NCBI RefSeq assembly: GCF_019393635.1
Contig: NC_057863.1
Coordinates: 643,905,306-643,969,305 of the forward strand
DNA: 64,000 nucleotides
Reading direction: 5' to 3'
DNA from: Dromiciops gliroides
Taxonomy: Eukaryota > Chordata > Mammalia > Microbiotheria > Microbiotheriidae
Translations under genes and position numbers: made by a program
In this document: piece after piece, positions 7,156 to 53,300 of the stretch
Numbering within the stretch: position 1 is the stretch's first letter
Layout: each line of letters starts with the position of its first letter
Notes under the pieces: model-generated
What the model was told of the DNA's origin: nothing
Seen by the model: the letters and a program-made list of their open reading frames with translations, nothing else
The model's database searches: none

Positions 7156-7238
7156 GGTCCGCCGGATCTCCCTGCCGTCTCCTCCTTCTCTTCTTCCTCC
7201 TTATTCTCCTGCCCCTTCCACCCTCTACCCCAGCTCAC

Positions 7239-7400
7239 CGATCCGGGCTCCATGGCTCCGGACTGGGGGCGGGGCAGGGGCCCGGAGCCTGTCCTTGTCA
7301 CACCCAGACAGCCAACTGCTCGGCCGCCCACAGCGACTGGCTAAAGCCTCACCCGCGCCTTGCGCTGATTGGCTGGGTGAGGTTACCGTTCCGACTACAG
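7239..7400 (-). promoter_or_regulatory. SERTAD3: Presumed SERTAD3 promoter and first exon
   Basis: On the minus strand the order is a CCAAT box (7372-7368), a GC box (GGGGCGGGGC-type, about 7264-7275), then GCCATGG (ATG at 7253) and a good donor ATCG/gtgagc with the last exon base at 7239. Joining this donor to the acceptor at 5042 gives a normal GT-AG intron of about 2.2 kb. The exact transcription start is not determined. Confidence 0.6.
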
Positions 7401-7512
7401 GTGATGCTAGTCTCCACTCTTTTCTTCTCATCCCTTCCACCGCCCCGGGCCATTTAAAGACCAGAGTCGCGTGACTGCCAGACTAATTAGCTTCCCGGGG
7501 TAGGTGCGGGCC

Positions 7513-7551
7513 CCTCCTCTCTGGGCTGTCTAAAAGCCCAGAGGGAGGAGG
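7513..7551. repeat. Short GC-rich inverted repeat
   Basis: CCTCCTCTCTGGGCT and AGCCCAGAGGGAGGAGG are complementary apart from a two-base bulge, around a seven-base loop GTCTAAA. It could form a cruciform or RNA hairpin in the CpG-rich region between SERTAD3 and BLVRB. Confidence 0.7.
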
Positions 7552-7699
7552 TGAGGTGAGAAGGAGAAAAGAGGTTTTTGGGGTTTTTTTCCGCTAGGGC
7601 CCGCAGAAAAGGGACCCCGCCCGACCCCGCCCACTCGCACTTGCTGGTGTAGACAGCGCAGGCGTAAAGAGGAGGCTAACGCAGCTGTCCAAAGCCCTG

Positions 7700-7756
7700 C
7701 CTGCAGCCAATCAGACTGGCCAGTGGCGGGGGAGAGGGAGGAAGCGTGAAGTCGCC
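7700..7756 (+). promoter_or_regulatory. CCAAT/GC promoter-like patch
   Basis: A CCAAT box (7707-7711) lies 46 bases ahead of a strong-context GCCATGG in a GC-rich block with nearby GC boxes. It faces away from SERTAD3, so a divergent plus-strand transcript is possible. Confidence 0.4.
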
Positions 7757-7876
7757 ATGGCTACCAGGATCCTGCCCTTTCGGACTCCCCGAAGCCCCGC
7801 CCTCGAGGCATTAGAGGTTGGGGAAGGGATGGATGTGTCCTGGGCGGGGCGGGGCTGGGCTGGGCTCCTTCTCTAA
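7757..7876 (+). CDS. Possible 39-residue micro-ORF of unknown function
   Basis: ATG in a strong context (GCCATGG) opens a 39-codon frame starting MATRILPFRTPRSPALEALE and ending in TAA. No family is recognised, there are no membrane or signal features, and the C-terminus is Gly/Trp-rich because of GC boxes. It could be the start of a longer spliced product, an upstream ORF of a divergent non-coding RNA, or chance. Supported only by context. Confidence 0.2.
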   Translation: MATRILPFRTPRSPALEALEVGEGMDVSWAGRGWAGLLL

Positions 7877-7881
7877 GTCAA

Positions 7882-7953
7882 ACACACAGGCACACACACG
7901 CGCACACGCGTGCACGCACACCTCACACGTGTACGCACACGTGCACGCACACA
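7882..7953. repeat. Alternating purine-pyrimidine (CA/CG) tract
   Basis: About 70 bp of nearly unbroken CA, CG and TG dinucleotides, including CACACGCGCACACGCGTGCA. The mix of CA and CG steps is a Z-DNA-prone composition. It lies immediately after the GC-rich promoter patch. Confidence 0.85.
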
Positions 7954-8124
7954 GCCAGGGATCCGAGGGGATGGAGACTGATAAAGAGAGGGAAGGCAAG
8001 GCATACTGGAGAGGAAAGACAGACAGGGAAGGAGAAATAGAAGAGGAGAAACAGGCAAGCAGAGAGGGAGATAGACGGGAGAGGAAAGGAGAGGGAGAGA
8101 CATTGAGAAGGGGAGACAGAGCGA

Positions 8125-8226
8125 AAGAGAGATAGATACCAACAAGGGAGGTGATATAGACCAGGAAATTAAAACGGGAGGAGAGGCGGAATACAAAAGA
8201 CAGACCAGAGAGGACAGGGGAGTTGA
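8125..8226 (+). repeat. Direct repeat A, copy 2
   Basis: Second copy of the 5815-5920 segment in the same orientation, 2.3 kb downstream. Both copies contain GAGATAGATAC, GACCAGGAAATTAAAAC and ACAGACCAGAGAG-like blocks with small indels. Confidence 0.8.
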
Positions 8227-9363: not shown

Positions 9364-13880
<4,517 letters not shown>

Positions 13881-14309
13881 GCTTCCGGCGGCCGGGGATC
13901 CTGCGTGGAGGGGTGGGAACAGAGACCACAGAAAATTGTGCGCCTCGCAGCGAAACGCTAGACCCGGATCTAGAGCCCCGAACTCTGGCCGCCCGCTCCC
14001 CAGCCTCAGCCAAGCCCCACCCCTGGAGAGGCGGGCCAGCAAGGAGACCCCGCCTCCGGACACGCCCCCTCCTCCCAGACCATCGAGCTGGTCTGTGGAA
14101 AGCCGTCCGCGTTAGCCCTGGCGTTTTCATTTAAAGGTCCATGGGATAGACACAGCCTTCGCCTCCACAGAGCTGGTAGCGGACTCAGAGATATCTTCAT
14201 CGCTTTCATCTTACAGGTGAGGAAGCTGGGGCAAAGAAATGATTTCAGTTTCATGTAAGTCAATGCAGAGTAAGTGCAAGGCACAGAGAGTACAACACTA
14301 AGGAAACAT

Positions 14310-18899: not shown

Positions 18900-19540
18900 A
18901 GCTAAGTTGGGAGCGAGCTGGCAGGGCTGTGTCACAGGCTGGACTTAGGGAGACTTTAGCAGGTAAAGGTGAGAGTGAGGGTCTCCTGCTGGGTGTTCGG
19001 TGGGGGAAGAAGCTCAAATCTTATGTGAGTTGAGGGGGTCATGGTGGGGAAGGGATGAGAGGGTCTTGATGGTGGGGAGAGATGGATAGGATAAAAGGGG
19101 TTCAGTCTGAGCTTGGGGATCCAGGCTAGTGAAGGGAGGGGAGGGGGGGGGAAGGGGCTGAAAACAAGAGGAATGTGGGGGACAAAGTTATGGGAGCTCC
19201 AGGTCACACGTGGTTGAGGTGGTCAAGCTGGAGGGAAGCCGAGGGTTTCACATAGTGGGGGGAGGGCTGGAAAAAGGGGCCCCAGTGTTAGCTTGGGGCA
19301 TTCAAGTTAGTGGGAGTGGAGGAGTGAGAGGGAAGCCTATGGGCGCCTGGAGAGGGGAGGCAGCTGAGGGGGGTCAGGATGGTGAAGAGAGAGGGGCCTC
19401 AGGCGGAGTTTGGGGGAATCTAGGCCAGTGCGAGTTGATGCACAAGGGGCACAAGGAGGGGCGGGGGTCCCCGATCACGTTCCGACGAGGGAGTCAGTGG
19501 TGGTGGGGAGCTGAGCAGCTCCCAGGGTCACACGTCAGGC
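18900..19540 (+). repeat. Degenerate G-rich tandem array upstream of SPTBN4
   Basis: A unit resembling CAGTCTGAGCTTGGGGATCC, AGGCTAGTGAAGGG, GGGTCATGGTGGGG recurs near 18900, 19103, 19283 and 19397 with drift and unequal spacing (about 110-180 bp). It ends at the SPTBN4 CpG island. Confidence 0.5.
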
Positions 19541-20110
19541 TGAGTAGGGCATGAGGGGGTCCCTGGCCAAGTGGACGTTGGGGGACATGGGGGGGCCTAG
19601 GGGCCGATCGGAGGCGAGGAGTGAGGGGGCAGGCCGCTGCCGTGGATCCGGGCGGGCGGAGGGGAGCGCGCGGAGCTGGGGGCGGGGGGCCAGCGGCGCA
19701 TCGGCGGTGGCTGCTGCGGCGGCGGCGCATGCGGCCCAGGCCCAAGCCCGGCGACGGCGGCGGCGGCGGCAGCGGCGGCGGCCGGAGGACCCGGGGCCAG
19801 CCCGAGCTCAAGCAGCGGCTGCTGCAGCAACTGCGGCGGCATCCGAGAAAGAGGAGGAGGAGGTGGGGCGGCCGGACCACGGAGGCAGCGGCCGGGGCCG
19901 GGCAGGCGCAGGTGAGACCCTGGGGCATCAGGCCCTGTTCCTGGGGAAGGAAGGGATGGGGGACGGGGCCGGGACCCTGCGTGTCCTCCCTTTCCCTCCA
20001 CTGCCCTGTGGCCCCCACCCCGCCCTGGACCGCCCGCACCTGCGAAAGGGAGGGGGGGGGAGCGAGGCGGAGGGCATCTTCCCACGGGCGCCCGCATCTC
20101 CAGTGCTCAC
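19440..20110 (+). promoter_or_regulatory. SPTBN4: SPTBN4 CpG island and presumed non-coding exon 1
   Basis: CpG-dense block with CGG/GGC runs (19720-19790). It contains a strong donor GCGCAG/gtgaga with the last exon base at 19911, about 10.2 kb ahead of the first coding exon. Joining 19911 to 30104 keeps the 30120 ATG as the first methionine matching betaIV-spectrin; the long open frame through the island (19551 onward) is not in phase with it. The transcription start is not resolved. Confidence 0.65.
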
Positions 20111-47300: not shown

Positions 47301-50300
47301 CCTGACGGTCCCCCTGGTCCATGGGGCACCGAGCACCCCCTCCCCCGCCCCCCAGGAGCCAAGAAACTCAGCTTCGGGCCCAGGAGTGGATGCAGTGTCT
47401 CTATGATCAGCTGGAGCTGCAGCATTTCCTAAGGGACTGTCAGGAGGTAAGGAGAAGGGGAAGGAGGGGGACACACTGGCTGAGAACCTTGGCTGACTCC
47501 TTCCCTGAGGGCCCACTCACATCCTCAGTGTGAGAAAAAGGACTTGGCCAAGTTGGGATGAGAGGAAGGGGAGGGAGATCCCAAACTGCAGCTGGAAAAA
47601 TCGTTCGACTCAAGGAATTCTTTCCCCGGAGTAGTCTGCAAAAAGCCAGAAGGGGTCTGGGATTCGGGTCTCCTGAGTCTCTGTTGGAAGCTCAGCCTCA
47701 CCCCCTTCCCCACGCCTCCTCGTATTTCCTGGGGGGGTTGGGGGGGGAAGGGTAGAGAATTGACTAGAACCACCAGAAGGCGCCATCATCCCATGCTTCT
47801 TCGATGATTACTGTGAGGCGGGGCTAGGCCCTGGCAACCTTGTTTCCTAGCAACGTAGACCCCGCCTGCGCCTGTGGCAGAGGAGGCACGTGAAGGGGGG
47901 GGTTGGGAGGGATTTGGGCCGGTGAGCTGGAGCAGACTTTCCGCAGCTGGGGGGTGGGATGTGTAGGGTACACAAGTTGAGGACCGCTGTGACCTCGTGG
48001 CGGTGGGGGCATGAGCTCGGGGAGAAGCATTCCACCCCCCCACCCCCGCCCCACCTCCCCTAGCATCCCATTCCCCCCTCCTTGTGCTCAGCCCCCACCG
48101 TAGGAAAAGACTTAGATTTGAAATCAGAGGACTTTGGTTCATATTCTACCTGCGTGACCTTGGGCAACTCACTTAACCTCTTTAGGCCTCAGTGTAAAAG
48201 GAAAAGGGTGGACGAGATGAACTCGAAGGTCCCTTCCAACCCTAAAGGGATGATCCACCCTCCAGCTCCTTGTCCCCATCTCCTGCCCTTCCCCCACCTC
48301 TACCTTTTCCTAGCTCTATGACCTTGGGTAAGTCTCTTGACCTTTGTGAGCCTGTTTCCTCATCTGTAAAATGGGGTTAATCATATCTCCCAGGCTTGTA
48401 GTGAGGCTCATTAGATGACGCACATCAAACGCTTTGCAAACCTTGGGGCGCTACCTAAATGTCAGCTCTTACTGGGAGGACCCTCGTTCCTGCTTCTCAG
48501 TTATCTGATGCTTCTCCCTTCCCCATCTCCGCTTGGCTTGCTCTGCTTCCTGTCTTGGTCCCTCCATCCTCAGCCTCCTCTCCTGATCCCCTCTCTCTAT
48601 TTATTCCCAACCTCTGTCCGCGTTCTAAACCCTTCTCCTCCCGATACCTGTCCCCCTGCTACCTCTTCCCCCGCACCCTCCCCCCTTCCCCGACTGTCTC
48701 CTCGAGGACTCCTTCCACCTCTCTCCGCTGGGTCTCCCCTGTGCGCGCACCCCTAGAGACATGAAAGGTGGGGGGAAGGGGGAGACTCTAGCCAGTGCAC
48801 TTGCGGGACCGCGGTTGGGGGGTGGGGAGGGGAGGGGCGGCGCGGGCGCGCGCGCGCGCGCCGCGGTTATCTGTGCCCATTGCTGCAGTGGCCCAGGGAG
48901 CGCCGCCCGCCGCAGGTACTGCGCGCCGCCTCTGGGCTGGGGGCGCGTAGAGGAGGGGGCTGGAGCGCGCCCCCGTGATGGACGGTGGGGGTAGGGGAGG
49001 AGAGAGAGCGCGTGCGCCCCAAGAGGGCGGGAAGGGGGGTACCCCCCAGGAGAGGATGCTGTCCTTGGTGCTGAACCTGAGGGGGGGGGCAGGACTCGTG
49101 ACTGCACTGGTCCCTAGAGGAGGGGGAGGGCAGCTCTCGCTGGGATAGGCCCCTAGGGAGGGGGCAGTTTCTGATTCAATTGGCCCCCCCAGGGTGGGGG
49201 TGGGGGTCAGCTGGCTATCTGATTGGCCCCTGGGAACTATCCGTGGTTCTGAAGCTTCCCCAGGGGTGGGGAAATGCAGGGTCCTTTAATCTTGGGGACA
49301 TGTGGGGTTTATGGGGGGGGCTGTGAACTGTCTTTGGTGCGTATGACGTTCATAACTGGCCCAGACTGGGGAGAGACCTAGACCTGGCCTTGACAGTGGT
49401 GTGGTGTTTGGGGGGAGGGAAGGGGAGCTGTGACTTATTTTCCCTGAGAGTGATGAACTGGATTTGTTTCTGTGTTGTGGTTGCCTTTTGGGGGGAGGGG
49501 GTGTCTGTATGTCTTTGTCTGAGGGATGTGGCTCTGGTTAGGGGCTGTGATTGATTGGGGGGGGGTAACAGGGACTGAATCTTTCTTTCCTTTATTTTTT
49601 TTTAAGTGGAGCATTATGACTCGTTTTCCCTTGATAGTGGTGGTGGGAGAAATGGAGGAGGCTGACCTAAATTTGGCCATAGTTTGGGGGAAGACTGGCT
49701 TTTGTGTGACTGGCTTTGCCTGGAGTGGCAACCTAAGTCTGGCTGTGATTGAGGAGCAGTTTGCTTGGGGGTCCTGGAACAGGACTTAGCTTTGGGTGGG
49801 GCCTGTAACAGATTTTGCCTTGAAAGGGATGGGTTGTATGTGCTCCTATTTTTTGTGGGGTATCTCTGCTTGGAGAGGGCTTATGGCCACTTTGGCTAGG
49901 AAAGGACCTGGACTTCACTGACTTGTTTCAGTTTGGGGGGAGGGGTCGGGTGGAGACCTAGATCTCTTTTTGCTCTAGGTTTTTTGGAGAGAGGACTCGA
50001 ACTGATTTTACCCAGGTGGGAGGTCTGGATCTGAGAGCTTTTTAACTGGCTTTGATCCTAGGGCATTTGGGGGAGAGCAGCTGACTGATACCAAATTTGC
50101 CTAGAGACTTGGGTGCTTTCTTGTTGGTGGGGTGGCCTTGGTTGCAGGATGTGAGGGAATGTGTATGCAGGCAGGGCTGGGGGGGGTGCTGGAGTTGGTT
50201 TGTTCCTGGAAGGGCAGTCTTCTGTCAGCTGCCTCCTTCAGGGTTAGTAAGAATGGAGGTGCCTTTACCACTACCGTCCCCCTCTGGGGAAGGAGGAGAT

Positions 50301-53300
50301 GGGCCCAGAGGGCCTCCTCCAATCTCTTCTAGAAAGCAACCTTGCAAATCCTACAACATCCCTCTGCATCCTCATTCCCTTGAGTTGGGGGGAAGGGGAG
50401 AGAGCAAGATTTGTGGGGGTCCCTGGGATTTAAGTGCTCACAGACCTCAGTTCAGGGCCTGGTGTGAGGGACTGGAAGTGATCAGGGTCAAGGGCTTTTG
50501 GACAGATGGATAGGGAGTGGGGGGCTAGGTTTGGCTGCTTCACCAAGGACTCCCCATCCCCCACCCCGCCTGTGTGCAGCTGGATGGCTGGCTTCATGAA
50601 AAGATGCTGATGGCTCGGGACAGTACTCGGGAGGAAGGTCACAAGCTGAGGAAACGATGGCTCCGGCACCAGGCTTTCATGGCCGAGCTGGCCCAGAATA
50701 AGGAATGGCTGGAGAAGATCGAAAAGGTGAGTGGGGGGAAGGGCCTCCTCCTAGTCCCAGAGCATCTGTTGTTTTGCCCCCTCCCTCCCCGAGCTCTTGG
50801 CCTTAACTAGAGAAATGCTGAAAAGGAGCCTCGTGCAGTGGAAAGAACACCAGAGTGAGAGGACCTGGGTGTGAATCCTGGCTCTGCTTCCTGTTACATG
50901 GGTGACACTGGATAAGTCACTGTCTCTTTTTGGGTCTCATATGTAAAATGATCAATGATGTCTGAGAGCCCTTTCAGCTCTAAATCTGATAAATCCTTCC
51001 CAGCCTGAGCTTTGGGATGAAATCCACCAGCAGAGGGCCTGGGGGAAACAACTCAGCAGAGCTTGTCTCAGCTCTCCTCTCCTCTCCTCTCCTTCCCTGG
51101 AGGGCCCTGGGGCATGAGGGAGGGTGGCACATGGCTCCCAGGAGTAGGGCTCAAGGATGGGAAGGCCTTGGCTCTGCTGAACTCTCTCCGCCCCCCCACT
51201 TCTCTAGCCCCAGTGATGTAGGATGGAAAAGAGGGCAGTAAATAGCCCCCATTGCCTTCTGTACTCAACCCCAGATCCAGGGGTTCAGGTTACTTCCAGA
51301 AGATATTCTGAGTTCTGGGGCTTCCTTCAGAATCTGTTCACCCCTGGCAGGACCCCAACATGATCCTTGGATACGGACCTCAGACTCTGCTCTCATGAGC
51401 CCATGGTCAGCCCCAAATTGAGCTGGTATCTAGTAGAGTTAGGAACCCTCAGACCAGGTCTTTGACTTTCCTGAATTGGGCCCTTTGACCAACCTTGATG
51501 CCCACACATTAATTGTCTCTTGACCAGTGTGTCTGTCTTTTCCCATGTTATTTGCTCTCTTTCCTTGTGTATATGTATGATTCTACCAGGGGACTGTTTT
51601 TCTGTGTGAATCTCTCCTTATGTGTCTGGTTTTTTCCCCTGTGTCTTTTCCCCAATGTGTCTCTGCCTCTTTGCCTGTGTGTTTCTGATCTTCTTTCCAT
51701 GTCTTTCTTCCATCTCTTCTTCTGTGTCTTTGCCCAGGTATGTTTCATCTTCCGTATGTATTTCCCATTGTGCATGTGTCACTGTCTCTTTCATTTCCTG
51801 TGTATCTCCCTGGGTGTGTGACTGCCCCTCCAAACATCTGAGTCTGTGTTTATCTCTTATTACATGTATCCCCCTTTCATTATTATCATCTCTCTCTTCT
51901 CCACTTTTGTGTGTCTGTCCTTTTTTCACTGTTGTTTTTCTTGTGTTCGTGTATGCCTGGCTCTGACCTTGATTCCCACTCCTACTTTGTATACCGCTGT
52001 CTCTGTCTCTTACTGTGTGTCTCTCCTTCACCCCCTGCTTGTCTTCTGTGACAGGAGGGTCAGCAGCTGATGCAGGAGAAGCCTGAACTGGCAAGCTCTG
52101 TCCAGAAGAAACTGGGGGAGATTCGGCAGTGCTGGGCTGAGTTGGAGAGCACCACCCAGGCCAAGGCTCGGCAGCTGTTTGAGGCCAGCCAGGCAGATCA
52201 ACTGGTCCAGAGCTTTGCTGAGCTAGACAAGCGGCTCATGCACATGGAGAGCCAGCTGCAGGGGGTAGACCCTGGGGGAGACCTGGCCACCGTCAACAGC
52301 CAACTGAAGAAGTTGCAGGTAGGCTGGGCTAGGCAGCCTGAGGTAGGGGGATTGCAAGTGATGACAAGGGTTGGTGGAAGGTTACTTTGTCAGTTTGGGG
52401 GGATTCCTGCACAATCACAAGCAGTGGAAAGAGCTCCCAGTTCTCTGAAGAGTGGGAAACTATGAATGTGAAGCACTTCCTATAACATCAGACTTTTCCA
52501 ATATGTGGTTTAATTTTGCTGAATTTTTTCCCTTCTTGATCATTTTTCCTTCTTTATTTGTGGGATGGCTTTCTGCTAGGGAGAGAGGTCCTTTGAATAA
52601 AGGGAGGAGATATAAAATCAGATATCAAGAAAAATTATTGTAAATAATAATTAGAATTTATTTGGCATTTTAATGTTAGCAAAACACTTTATATGTATTA
52701 TCTCATTTAATATTCATCATAACTCTTTGAGGTTGGTCCTATTAGGCCTACTTTACAAATGCAGAAACTGAGGCTAAGAGAGATTCAGTGAAACTTGTTC
52801 AGGGTCATGCAGCTCATAAGTGTTGGAGGCAGGACTCAACTCAGCTCTTCTTCACTTTAAATCCAATGCTCTATCCTAGCTATCTTTTGGGGGGGGAGGG
52901 GCAGGGCAATGAGGGTTAAGTGACTTGCCCTAGTAAGTGTCAAGTGTCTGAGGCTGGATTTGAACTCAGCTCCTCCTGAATCCAGGGCCAGTGCTTTATC
53001 CACTGGGCCACCTAGCTGCCCCCTATCCTAGCTATCTTTAAAAAACATAATGGGACAGTGGAGCCTCTCCTGTCCCCCATCCCCTTCACCTGGAAGAGAC
53101 CAGGGCATGGTCCTGTTATCAAGAGTACTAGCAGGGCAGCTAGGTGGTGCAGTGGATAAATCACTGGCCCTGGATTCAGGAGGATCTGAGTTCAAATCCA
53201 GCCTCAGACACTTGATACTTACTATCTGTGTGGCCCTGGGCAAGTCACTTAACCCTCATTGCCCCCCCCCAAAAGAGTACTAGGGCTCATGTCAGGTGAT

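What the first reader, a model, noticed from the sequence alone, without database searches (positions are those of the whole stretch)
48750..49050. Intragenic CpG island ahead of SPTBN4 exon 19 looks like the promoter of a short (Sigma6-like) betaIV-spectrin
The island is one of only a few CpG-dense blocks in the window and sits mid-gene in intron 18. It has a TATA-less GC-rich core and a donor (48915/48916) that could splice to exon 19. The residues left from exon 19 onward (about 1250 if the rest matches human) fit the known 140 kDa isoform lacking the actin-binding half. It would place the switch between long and short betaIV-spectrin at this element.
Basis: partly seen in the sequence, partly recalled or inferred. 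Interest (0 to 1): 0.7.

Follow-up and report, generated by a model that had tools for sequence, protein, structure and literature searches.

The report
Likely REST-gated promoter for short betaIV-spectrin
Inside a marsupial gene for an axon skeleton protein lies a CpG island that is likely the start point of the short form of the protein; in it and just beyond it sit two sequences resembling the binding site of the neuronal-gene repressor REST, which would make the known developmental switch from long to short form a matter of turning on this promoter.

Summary
The window carries marsupial SPTBN4; its intron 18 (47447-50579) holds a CpG island (48493-49121) off all SPTBN4 coding exons, with the third CpG-richest 300 bases of the window. 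From exon 19 on the gene encodes about 141 kDa, and 31 of 120 listed SPTBN4-like proteins start exactly at exon 19's Met (window 50604), so the short isoform needs only a non-coding leader. Mouse primers agree: Sigma1 maps to exon 18, the shared one to exon 19, and the Sigma6-specific one, CpG-rich, to neither; it does not align to the island. Predicted mechanism: a REST-silenced internal promoter that opens as REST falls, making the Sigma1-to-Sigma6 switch transcriptional, not a splicing choice. No transcript, chromatin or ChIP data were available, and conservation of the island could not be tested.

The parts
48493..49121 (.). CpG island in SPTBN4 intron 18 (core 48750-49050)
   Evidence: 629 bp, GC 0.67, o/e 0.61; core GC 0.75, o/e 0.83; no coding overlap; holds the third CpG-richest 300-bp peak of the window
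48753..48763 (+). strand-asymmetry switch (C-rich before, G-rich after), near the predicted zone of transcription start on the + strand
   Evidence: minimum of cumulative G-C of the 64 kb at 48753; strongest skew jump for 500/500 and 500/1000 windows, level to two decimals with 15046 for 1000/1500, second for 300/300; after masking purine/pyrimidine runs first (500/1000) or third (500/500), at 48802-48805
48834..48840 (+). GC box (SP/KLF-type) GGGGCGG; others at 49024-49030 (+) and 48903-48908 (-)
   Evidence: motif recalled
48876..48881 (+). initiator-like CCCATT (BBCABW), one of 5 on the + strand in 48600-49121; weak evidence
   Evidence: motif recalled
48765..48773 (+). best-scoring donor candidate: AAG|GTGGGG after 48767
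   Evidence: 8.6 bits, 1st of 122 GTs in 48400-50560
   Evidence: 4.3 bits, 22nd of 122
48982..48990 (+). alternative donor ACG|GTGGGG after 48984
   Evidence: 6.4 bits
49055..49075 (-). RE1/NRSE (REST site) TTCAGCACCAAGGACAGCATC, both half-sites perfect over 16 fixed bases; inside the island
   Evidence: expected number of perfect cores in the window 6e-5
49233..49253 (-). second, weaker RE1-like site TTCAGAACCACGGATAGTTCC, same strand, 178 bp away, 112 bp beyond the island's border
   Evidence: 4 of 21 mismatches, second best of the window
47356..47446 (+). SPTBN4 exon 18 (last exon private to the long form); mouse Sigma1 forward primer maps here at 47373 with 3 of 21 mismatches
50580..50726 (+). 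SPTBN4 exon 19 (first exon shared by long and short forms); mouse common reverse primer maps at 50650-50670 with 4 of 21 mismatches
50604..50606 (+). predicted start codon of the short form (MLMARD...), A at -3; second Met codon at 50610-50612
   Evidence: 31 of 120 listed proteins begin at the homologous Met, 3 more at the next one
50584..50610 (+). small upstream ORF in exon 19 (MAGFMKRC*), its stop overlapping the second Met codon
19451..20002 (.). likely promoter island of the long (Sigma1) form; no RE1
   Evidence: best RE1 match within 500 bp has 7 of 21 mismatches; promoter role inferred only from position between BLVRB and coding exon 2

Best explanation
The CpG island in intron 18 of this marsupial SPTBN4 gene is likely the promoter and non-coding first exon of the short (Sigma6-type) betaIV-spectrin, and the two tandem RE1-like sites in it and just beyond it are predicted to let REST keep it silent until neurons mature. 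Shown by sequence: the island, its lack of coding overlap, the C-rich to G-rich switch, the RE1-like sites, the exon 18/19 layout, and the in-frame Met in exon 19 at which annotated short isoforms of other vertebrates start. Inferred: transcription starts somewhere in 48.6-48.9 kb on the + strand; the first exon ends at 48767, 48915 or 48984 and splices to 50580; translation starts at 50604, giving a protein of about 141 kDa without the actin-binding half; REST occupies 49055-49075. If so, the known change from Sigma1 to Sigma6 would be a change of promoter, not of splicing.
For: Island properties. Skew jump among the strongest in 64 kb, at the island; elevated GC skew downstream of start sites is described for the FMR1 CpG-island promoter (PMC3990486, passages). 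Another non-coding island, 13707-14271, lies on BLVRB's first coding exon. Short isoforms: 31 of 120 listed proteins begin at exon 19's Met at 50604 and 3 at the next Met; the 31 are bat, pangolin, elephant, axolotl and fish (names). Remaining mass 141-142 kDa against the published 140 kDa and start midway through repeat 10 (PMC6546920, passages). Mouse primers (PMC5226651, passages): Sigma1 forward maps to exon 18, common reverse to exon 19; Sigma6 forward has 3 CpG in 18 bases and none of its three forward-frame peptides occurs in 7 SPTBN4 proteins checked, whereas peptides of the other two primers occur in 4 and 5 of the 7 (no mouse protein among them); 3 CpG in 18 bases is about 70 times likelier at the island core's density than at that of the rest of the intron. 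RE1; in the whole window no other 21-mer comes below 6 mismatches. Tandem RE1s near Snap25 and Celsr3, and derepressed genes often having sites within 1 kb of the start, are reported in PMC2573930 (passages). Sigma6 mRNA rises from newborn to adult mouse brain (PMC5226651, sections 3 and 14).
Against: No RNA, CAGE, chromatin or ChIP data for this species were available. The mouse Sigma6 primer does not align to the island above chance (core score 13 of 36; 20 at 48417 in the same intron and near 1.3-1.4 kb). Exon 19's acceptor ranks only 24th of 212 AGs in the intron. Short-isoform entries are gene models and some may reflect assembly gaps. RE1 was noticed in a scan of 21 recalled motifs; with a looser published-style RE1 pattern the one hit is expected 0.11 times and 11 of 100 shuffles had at least one. 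The second RE1-like site is of a quality expected 0.7 times per 64 kb. In PMC2573930 most genes with a REST site were not derepressed when REST was blocked. With 300/300 windows the skew jump is second, and masking weakens it. RE1 sites can also silence from a distance (recalled). Papers seen call Sigma6 a splice variant and the word promoter is absent from four of them.
Confidence: 0.72

Rival explanations
1. The island with its RE1-like sites is an intragenic silencer or enhancer of SPTBN4 (or an orphan CpG island) that makes no spectrin mRNA; short isoforms start elsewhere in intron 18 or upstream.
For: RE1 sites often work at a distance (recalled); donors in the island are weak except 48767; the mouse Sigma6 primer does not align to it.
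Against: The published Sigma6 primer from mouse is CpG-rich, and intron 18 outside the island has o/e 0.21; skew switch and GC boxes fit a promoter.
Confidence: 0.17
2. The island is a promoter, but of an antisense or unrelated non-coding RNA inside SPTBN4.
For: CpG-island promoters often fire in both directions (recalled).
Against: Skew is negative upstream and positive downstream, as expected for + strand transcription; short isoforms need a promoter in or before this intron (inferred).
Confidence: 0.05
3. CpG density here is a composition accident of a GC-repeat and a G-rich intron, without regulatory role.
For: A (GC)8 run lies in the core; without it the whole block's o/e falls to 0.54.
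Against: The core without the run still has o/e 0.72 against 0.21 for the rest of the intron; a perfect 16-base RE1 core within it is expected 6e-7 times.
Confidence: 0.06

Closest known systems
betaIV-spectrin Sigma6 (SPTBN4 short isoform, about 140 kDa, studied in mouse)
   Same: lacks actin-binding domain and repeats 1-9; begins in repeat 10; shares the exon homologous to exon 19; its published mouse 5' primer is CpG-rich (PMC5226651, PMC6546920)
   Different: described in the papers seen as a splice variant; here the 5' end is placed at a CpG-island promoter with RE1-like sites; no transcript seen for this species; 5' exon homology not shown
REST/NRSF-bound neuronal genes with RE1 near the start site (e.g. 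Snap25, Celsr3 with tandem RE1s, PMC2573930 passages)
   Same: canonical two-half-site RE1 with 2-base spacer; two sites 178 bases apart; both within about 650 bases of the predicted start zone
   Different: here the promoter is internal and would control one isoform only; occupancy untested
Dystrophin internal promoters (Dp260, Dp140, Dp71)
   Same: several internal promoters give shorter, N-terminally truncated forms (PMC7372313, start of abstract in listing); that these lack the actin-binding domain is recalled
   Different: different gene; REST control there was not looked at

Membership tests
CpG-island promoter | GC over 0.5, CpG o/e over 0.6, 200 bp or more | tested here: met
   soft borders without the GC run
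CpG-island promoter | transcription start sites, unmethylated, H3K4me3 | not testable with these tools
   no expression or chromatin data held
CpG-island promoter | positive GC skew downstream of the start (seen at many, not all, such promoters; recalled) | tested here: met
   (first to third in the window, by window size and masking)
Sigma6-type betaIV-spectrin transcript | open frame from a Met in exon 19 to the C terminus, about 140 kDa | tested here: met
   the window ends after exon 23, the rest is taken from Sarcophilus and baboon proteins
Sigma6-type betaIV-spectrin transcript | first exon homologous to mouse Sigma6 5' exon | tested here: inconclusive
   the 18-base mouse primer has no significant match
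Sigma6-type betaIV-spectrin transcript | junction from island to 50580 in RNA | not testable with these tools
   no reads held
RE1/NRSE element | left and right half-sites with 2-base spacer (TTCAGCACC NN GGACAGC) | tested here: met
   first site 0 of 16 mismatches; second site 3 of 16
RE1/NRSE element | REST occupancy and repression | not testable with these tools
   no ChIP data; paper searches (25 of 447 listed) gave no SPTBN4-REST link

The most novel reading that the evidence does not exclude
The developmental replacement of long by short betaIV-spectrin at axon initial segments is not a splicing switch but a REST-controlled promoter switch: two RE1 sites silence an internal CpG-island promoter that only the short isoform uses, and loss of REST in maturing neurons releases it, so that one repressor sets whether the axonal spectrin lattice carries its actin-binding half.
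Probability: 0.4. Interest if true: 0.7.

Novelty: new member of a known kind. Interest (0 to 1): 0.5.

Why it matters
A 2019 review says the functional differences between embryonic and adult betaIV-spectrin isoforms remain elusive and treats the change as alternative splicing (PMC6906172, passages). If the short form has its own REST-gated promoter, the switch has a named regulator that can be tested by REST removal or by editing one 21-base site, and conditions that raise REST or methylate SPTBN4 could act on one isoform only. SPTBN4 hypermethylation in Alzheimer's disease is reported (PMC5485512, PMC9800733, PMC4691177; frontal cortex according to PMC11989983; passages); which SPTBN4 CpGs were measured was not seen.

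Tried and rejected
Aligning the mouse Sigma6 primer to the island: no significant match; the best place in the intron (48417) lies in what looks like a SINE (recognised by eye) and is matched equally well near 1.3-1.4 kb. Accepting donor 48915 as given: rejected as sole candidate. Skew switch as unique: tempered, since 300/300 windows put it second, 1000/1500 level with 15046, and masking leaves it third with 500/500. A 37-base cassette at 49979-50015 with the intron's best acceptor and second-best donor was considered as a second leader exon; untestable here. Numbering of spectrin repeats by Pfam: only the best stretch of 16 is shown, so 'repeat 10' rests on the papers. Whole-genome search for the window's assembly: not answered five times. 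Four Sigma6-related papers and the 2013 Alzheimer methylation paper are not held, so whether an internal promoter or a REST site is already described there is unknown to me. Of the 20 papers listed for SPTBN4, CpG island and promoter (21 found) I looked at passages of four only.

Full report
What is there. The window holds a SERTAD-like reading frame and BLVRB on the minus strand (BLVRB coding exon 1 at 13800-13880, on the island 13707-14271) and SPTBN4 on the plus strand from coding exon 2 (30120) through exon 23, after which the window ends. The SPTBN4 and BLVRB queries were recalled human proteins, and the SERTAD label is recalled from the peptide. A hand-corrected translation of the joined exons matches Tasmanian devil and sugar glider SPTBN4 at 98% over the residues searched, so I take the species to be a marsupial. 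Exon 18 is 47356-47446 and exon 19 is 50580-50726; the intron between them is phase 0.

The island. Twelve blocks in the window meet a Gardiner-Garden-type rule. Five lie on SPTBN4 coding exons; 48493-49121 does not. Its best 300 bases hold 34 CpG, third in the window after peaks at 901 and 19601. The window's CpG o/e is 0.24, the intron outside the island 0.21, the core 0.83 and still 0.72 without its (GC)8 run, though the whole block then falls to 0.54. There is no TATA box in 48600-49121; GC boxes lie at 48834, 48903 (minus) and 49024.

Direction. The cumulative G minus C count of the whole 64 kb has its minimum at 48753. The jump from C-rich to G-rich at 48755-48763 is the largest in the window for 500/500 and 500/1000 windows, level to two decimals with 15046 for 1000/1500, and second for 300/300. 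After masking purine/pyrimidine runs it is first (500/1000) or third (500/500) and moves to 48802-48805. Elevated GC skew downstream of start sites is described for the FMR1 CpG-island promoter (PMC3990486, passages). This fits, and does not prove, + strand initiation at the island.

The short isoform. Mouse RT-qPCR primers (PMC5226651, passages) place the shared reverse primer in exon 19 (50650-50670, 4 of 21 mismatches) and the Sigma1 forward primer in exon 18 (47373, 3 of 21). The Sigma6 forward primer matches neither. None of its three forward-frame peptides occurs in 7 SPTBN4 proteins checked, while peptides of the other two primers occur in 4 and 5 of the 7; no mouse protein was among them. 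With 3 CpG in 18 bases it is about 70 times likelier at island-core density than at that of the rest of the intron. It does not align to the island, so homology of the first exon stays unproven. A search with the Sarcophilus sequence from exon 19's Met onward (best 120 of 922 hits shown) gave 31 of 120 entries that begin exactly at that Met and 3 at the next one; 52 carry more than 80 residues before exon 19, 19 lack a good exon 19 match, 12 have a short extension and 3 start elsewhere in exon 19. Of the 62 newly listed entries of 1450 aa or less, 31 have that start. Three of the 31 are mammals (bat, pangolin, elephant), one an axolotl, 27 fish; these are gene models. So a transcript whose first coding exon is exon 19 seems old and needs only a non-coding leader. 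The remaining protein weighs 141-142 kDa in baboon and Sarcophilus, as published for Sigma6 (PMC6546920, passages).

Splicing. I leave the first exon's end open. In exon 19 a small upstream frame (50584-50610, MAGFMKRC*) precedes the main Met at 50604 and its stop overlaps the second Met at 50610.

The RE1 sites. A scan with 21 recalled motifs showed a REST half-site in the island. The published canonical NRSE is TTCAGCACCACGGACAGCGCC (PMC3529185, passages). The two best matches of this 21-mer in the entire window are 49055-49075 (3 mismatches, all outside the 16 core bases; inside the island) and 49233-49253 (4 mismatches; 112 bases beyond the island), both on the minus strand, 178 bases apart; the next best have 6. 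A perfect 16-base core is expected 6e-5 times per window and 6e-7 per island; of 400 simulated island-length sequences none had fewer than 3 core mismatches and 5 had 3. The second site alone is unremarkable window-wide (0.7 expected at that stringency), though 1 of 400 simulated 400-base stretches had one as good. Against this, a looser RE1 pattern gives one hit, the same site, where 11 of 100 shuffles gave at least one. Of the 12 CpG blocks, eight were tested one by one with 500-bp flanks: the island at 19451-20002, the likely Sigma1 promoter, has 7 mismatches at best, and none but this one is below 6. In mouse stem cells tandem RE1s lie near Snap25 and Celsr3, and the most derepressed genes often have sites within 1 kb of the start; the same paper says that most genes with a REST site were not derepressed (PMC2573930, passages).

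Mechanism. I read the island as an internal promoter with a non-coding first exon, silenced by REST through the RE1 pair in non-neuronal and immature cells and opened as REST falls. That would account for Sigma6 rising from newborn to adult mouse brain while Sigma1 does not (PMC5226651, sections 3 and 14). The papers seen call this splicing (PMC5226651 sections and passages; PMC6546920 and PMC6906172 passages). Initiation, the splice junction, REST binding and isoform specificity are all inferred.

Literature limits. Searches for SPTBN4 with REST terms (25 of 447 listed, complete lists of 2, 2 and 1) showed no paper linking them; the two co-mentions are Alzheimer reviews citing SPTBN4 hypermethylation, and the SPTBN4 passages I saw in them do not mention REST control. 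Four Sigma6-related papers are not held, so I cannot say that an internal promoter or RE1 has never been described.

Verdict. Real feature, likely a promoter of a known isoform, with a specific and testable regulatory addition. New member of a known kind.

Noticed in passing
49979-50015: The best-scoring acceptor of the intron (10.4) and the second-best donor of 48400-50560 (8.3) flank a 37-base possible exon; not a multiple of three, so it could only serve as a second leader exon of a short transcript.
   Followed up: partly
50584-50610: An upstream ORF in exon 19 ends in TGATG, its stop sharing a base with the second in-frame Met of the short isoform; conservation not checked.
   Followed up: partly
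49056-49075: Read on the + strand the RE1 begins ATGCTGTCCTTGGTGCTGAA and opens a frame (MLSLVLNL...) that would join exon 19 in frame if donor 49193 were used.
   Followed up: no
517-1716: This block holds the 300 bases richest in CpG of the window (109 CpG in all, o/e 0.75); its gene was not identified.
   Followed up: no
7158-8127: A CpG-containing block (52 CpG) with a CA/CG repeat inside and no assigned gene.
   Followed up: no
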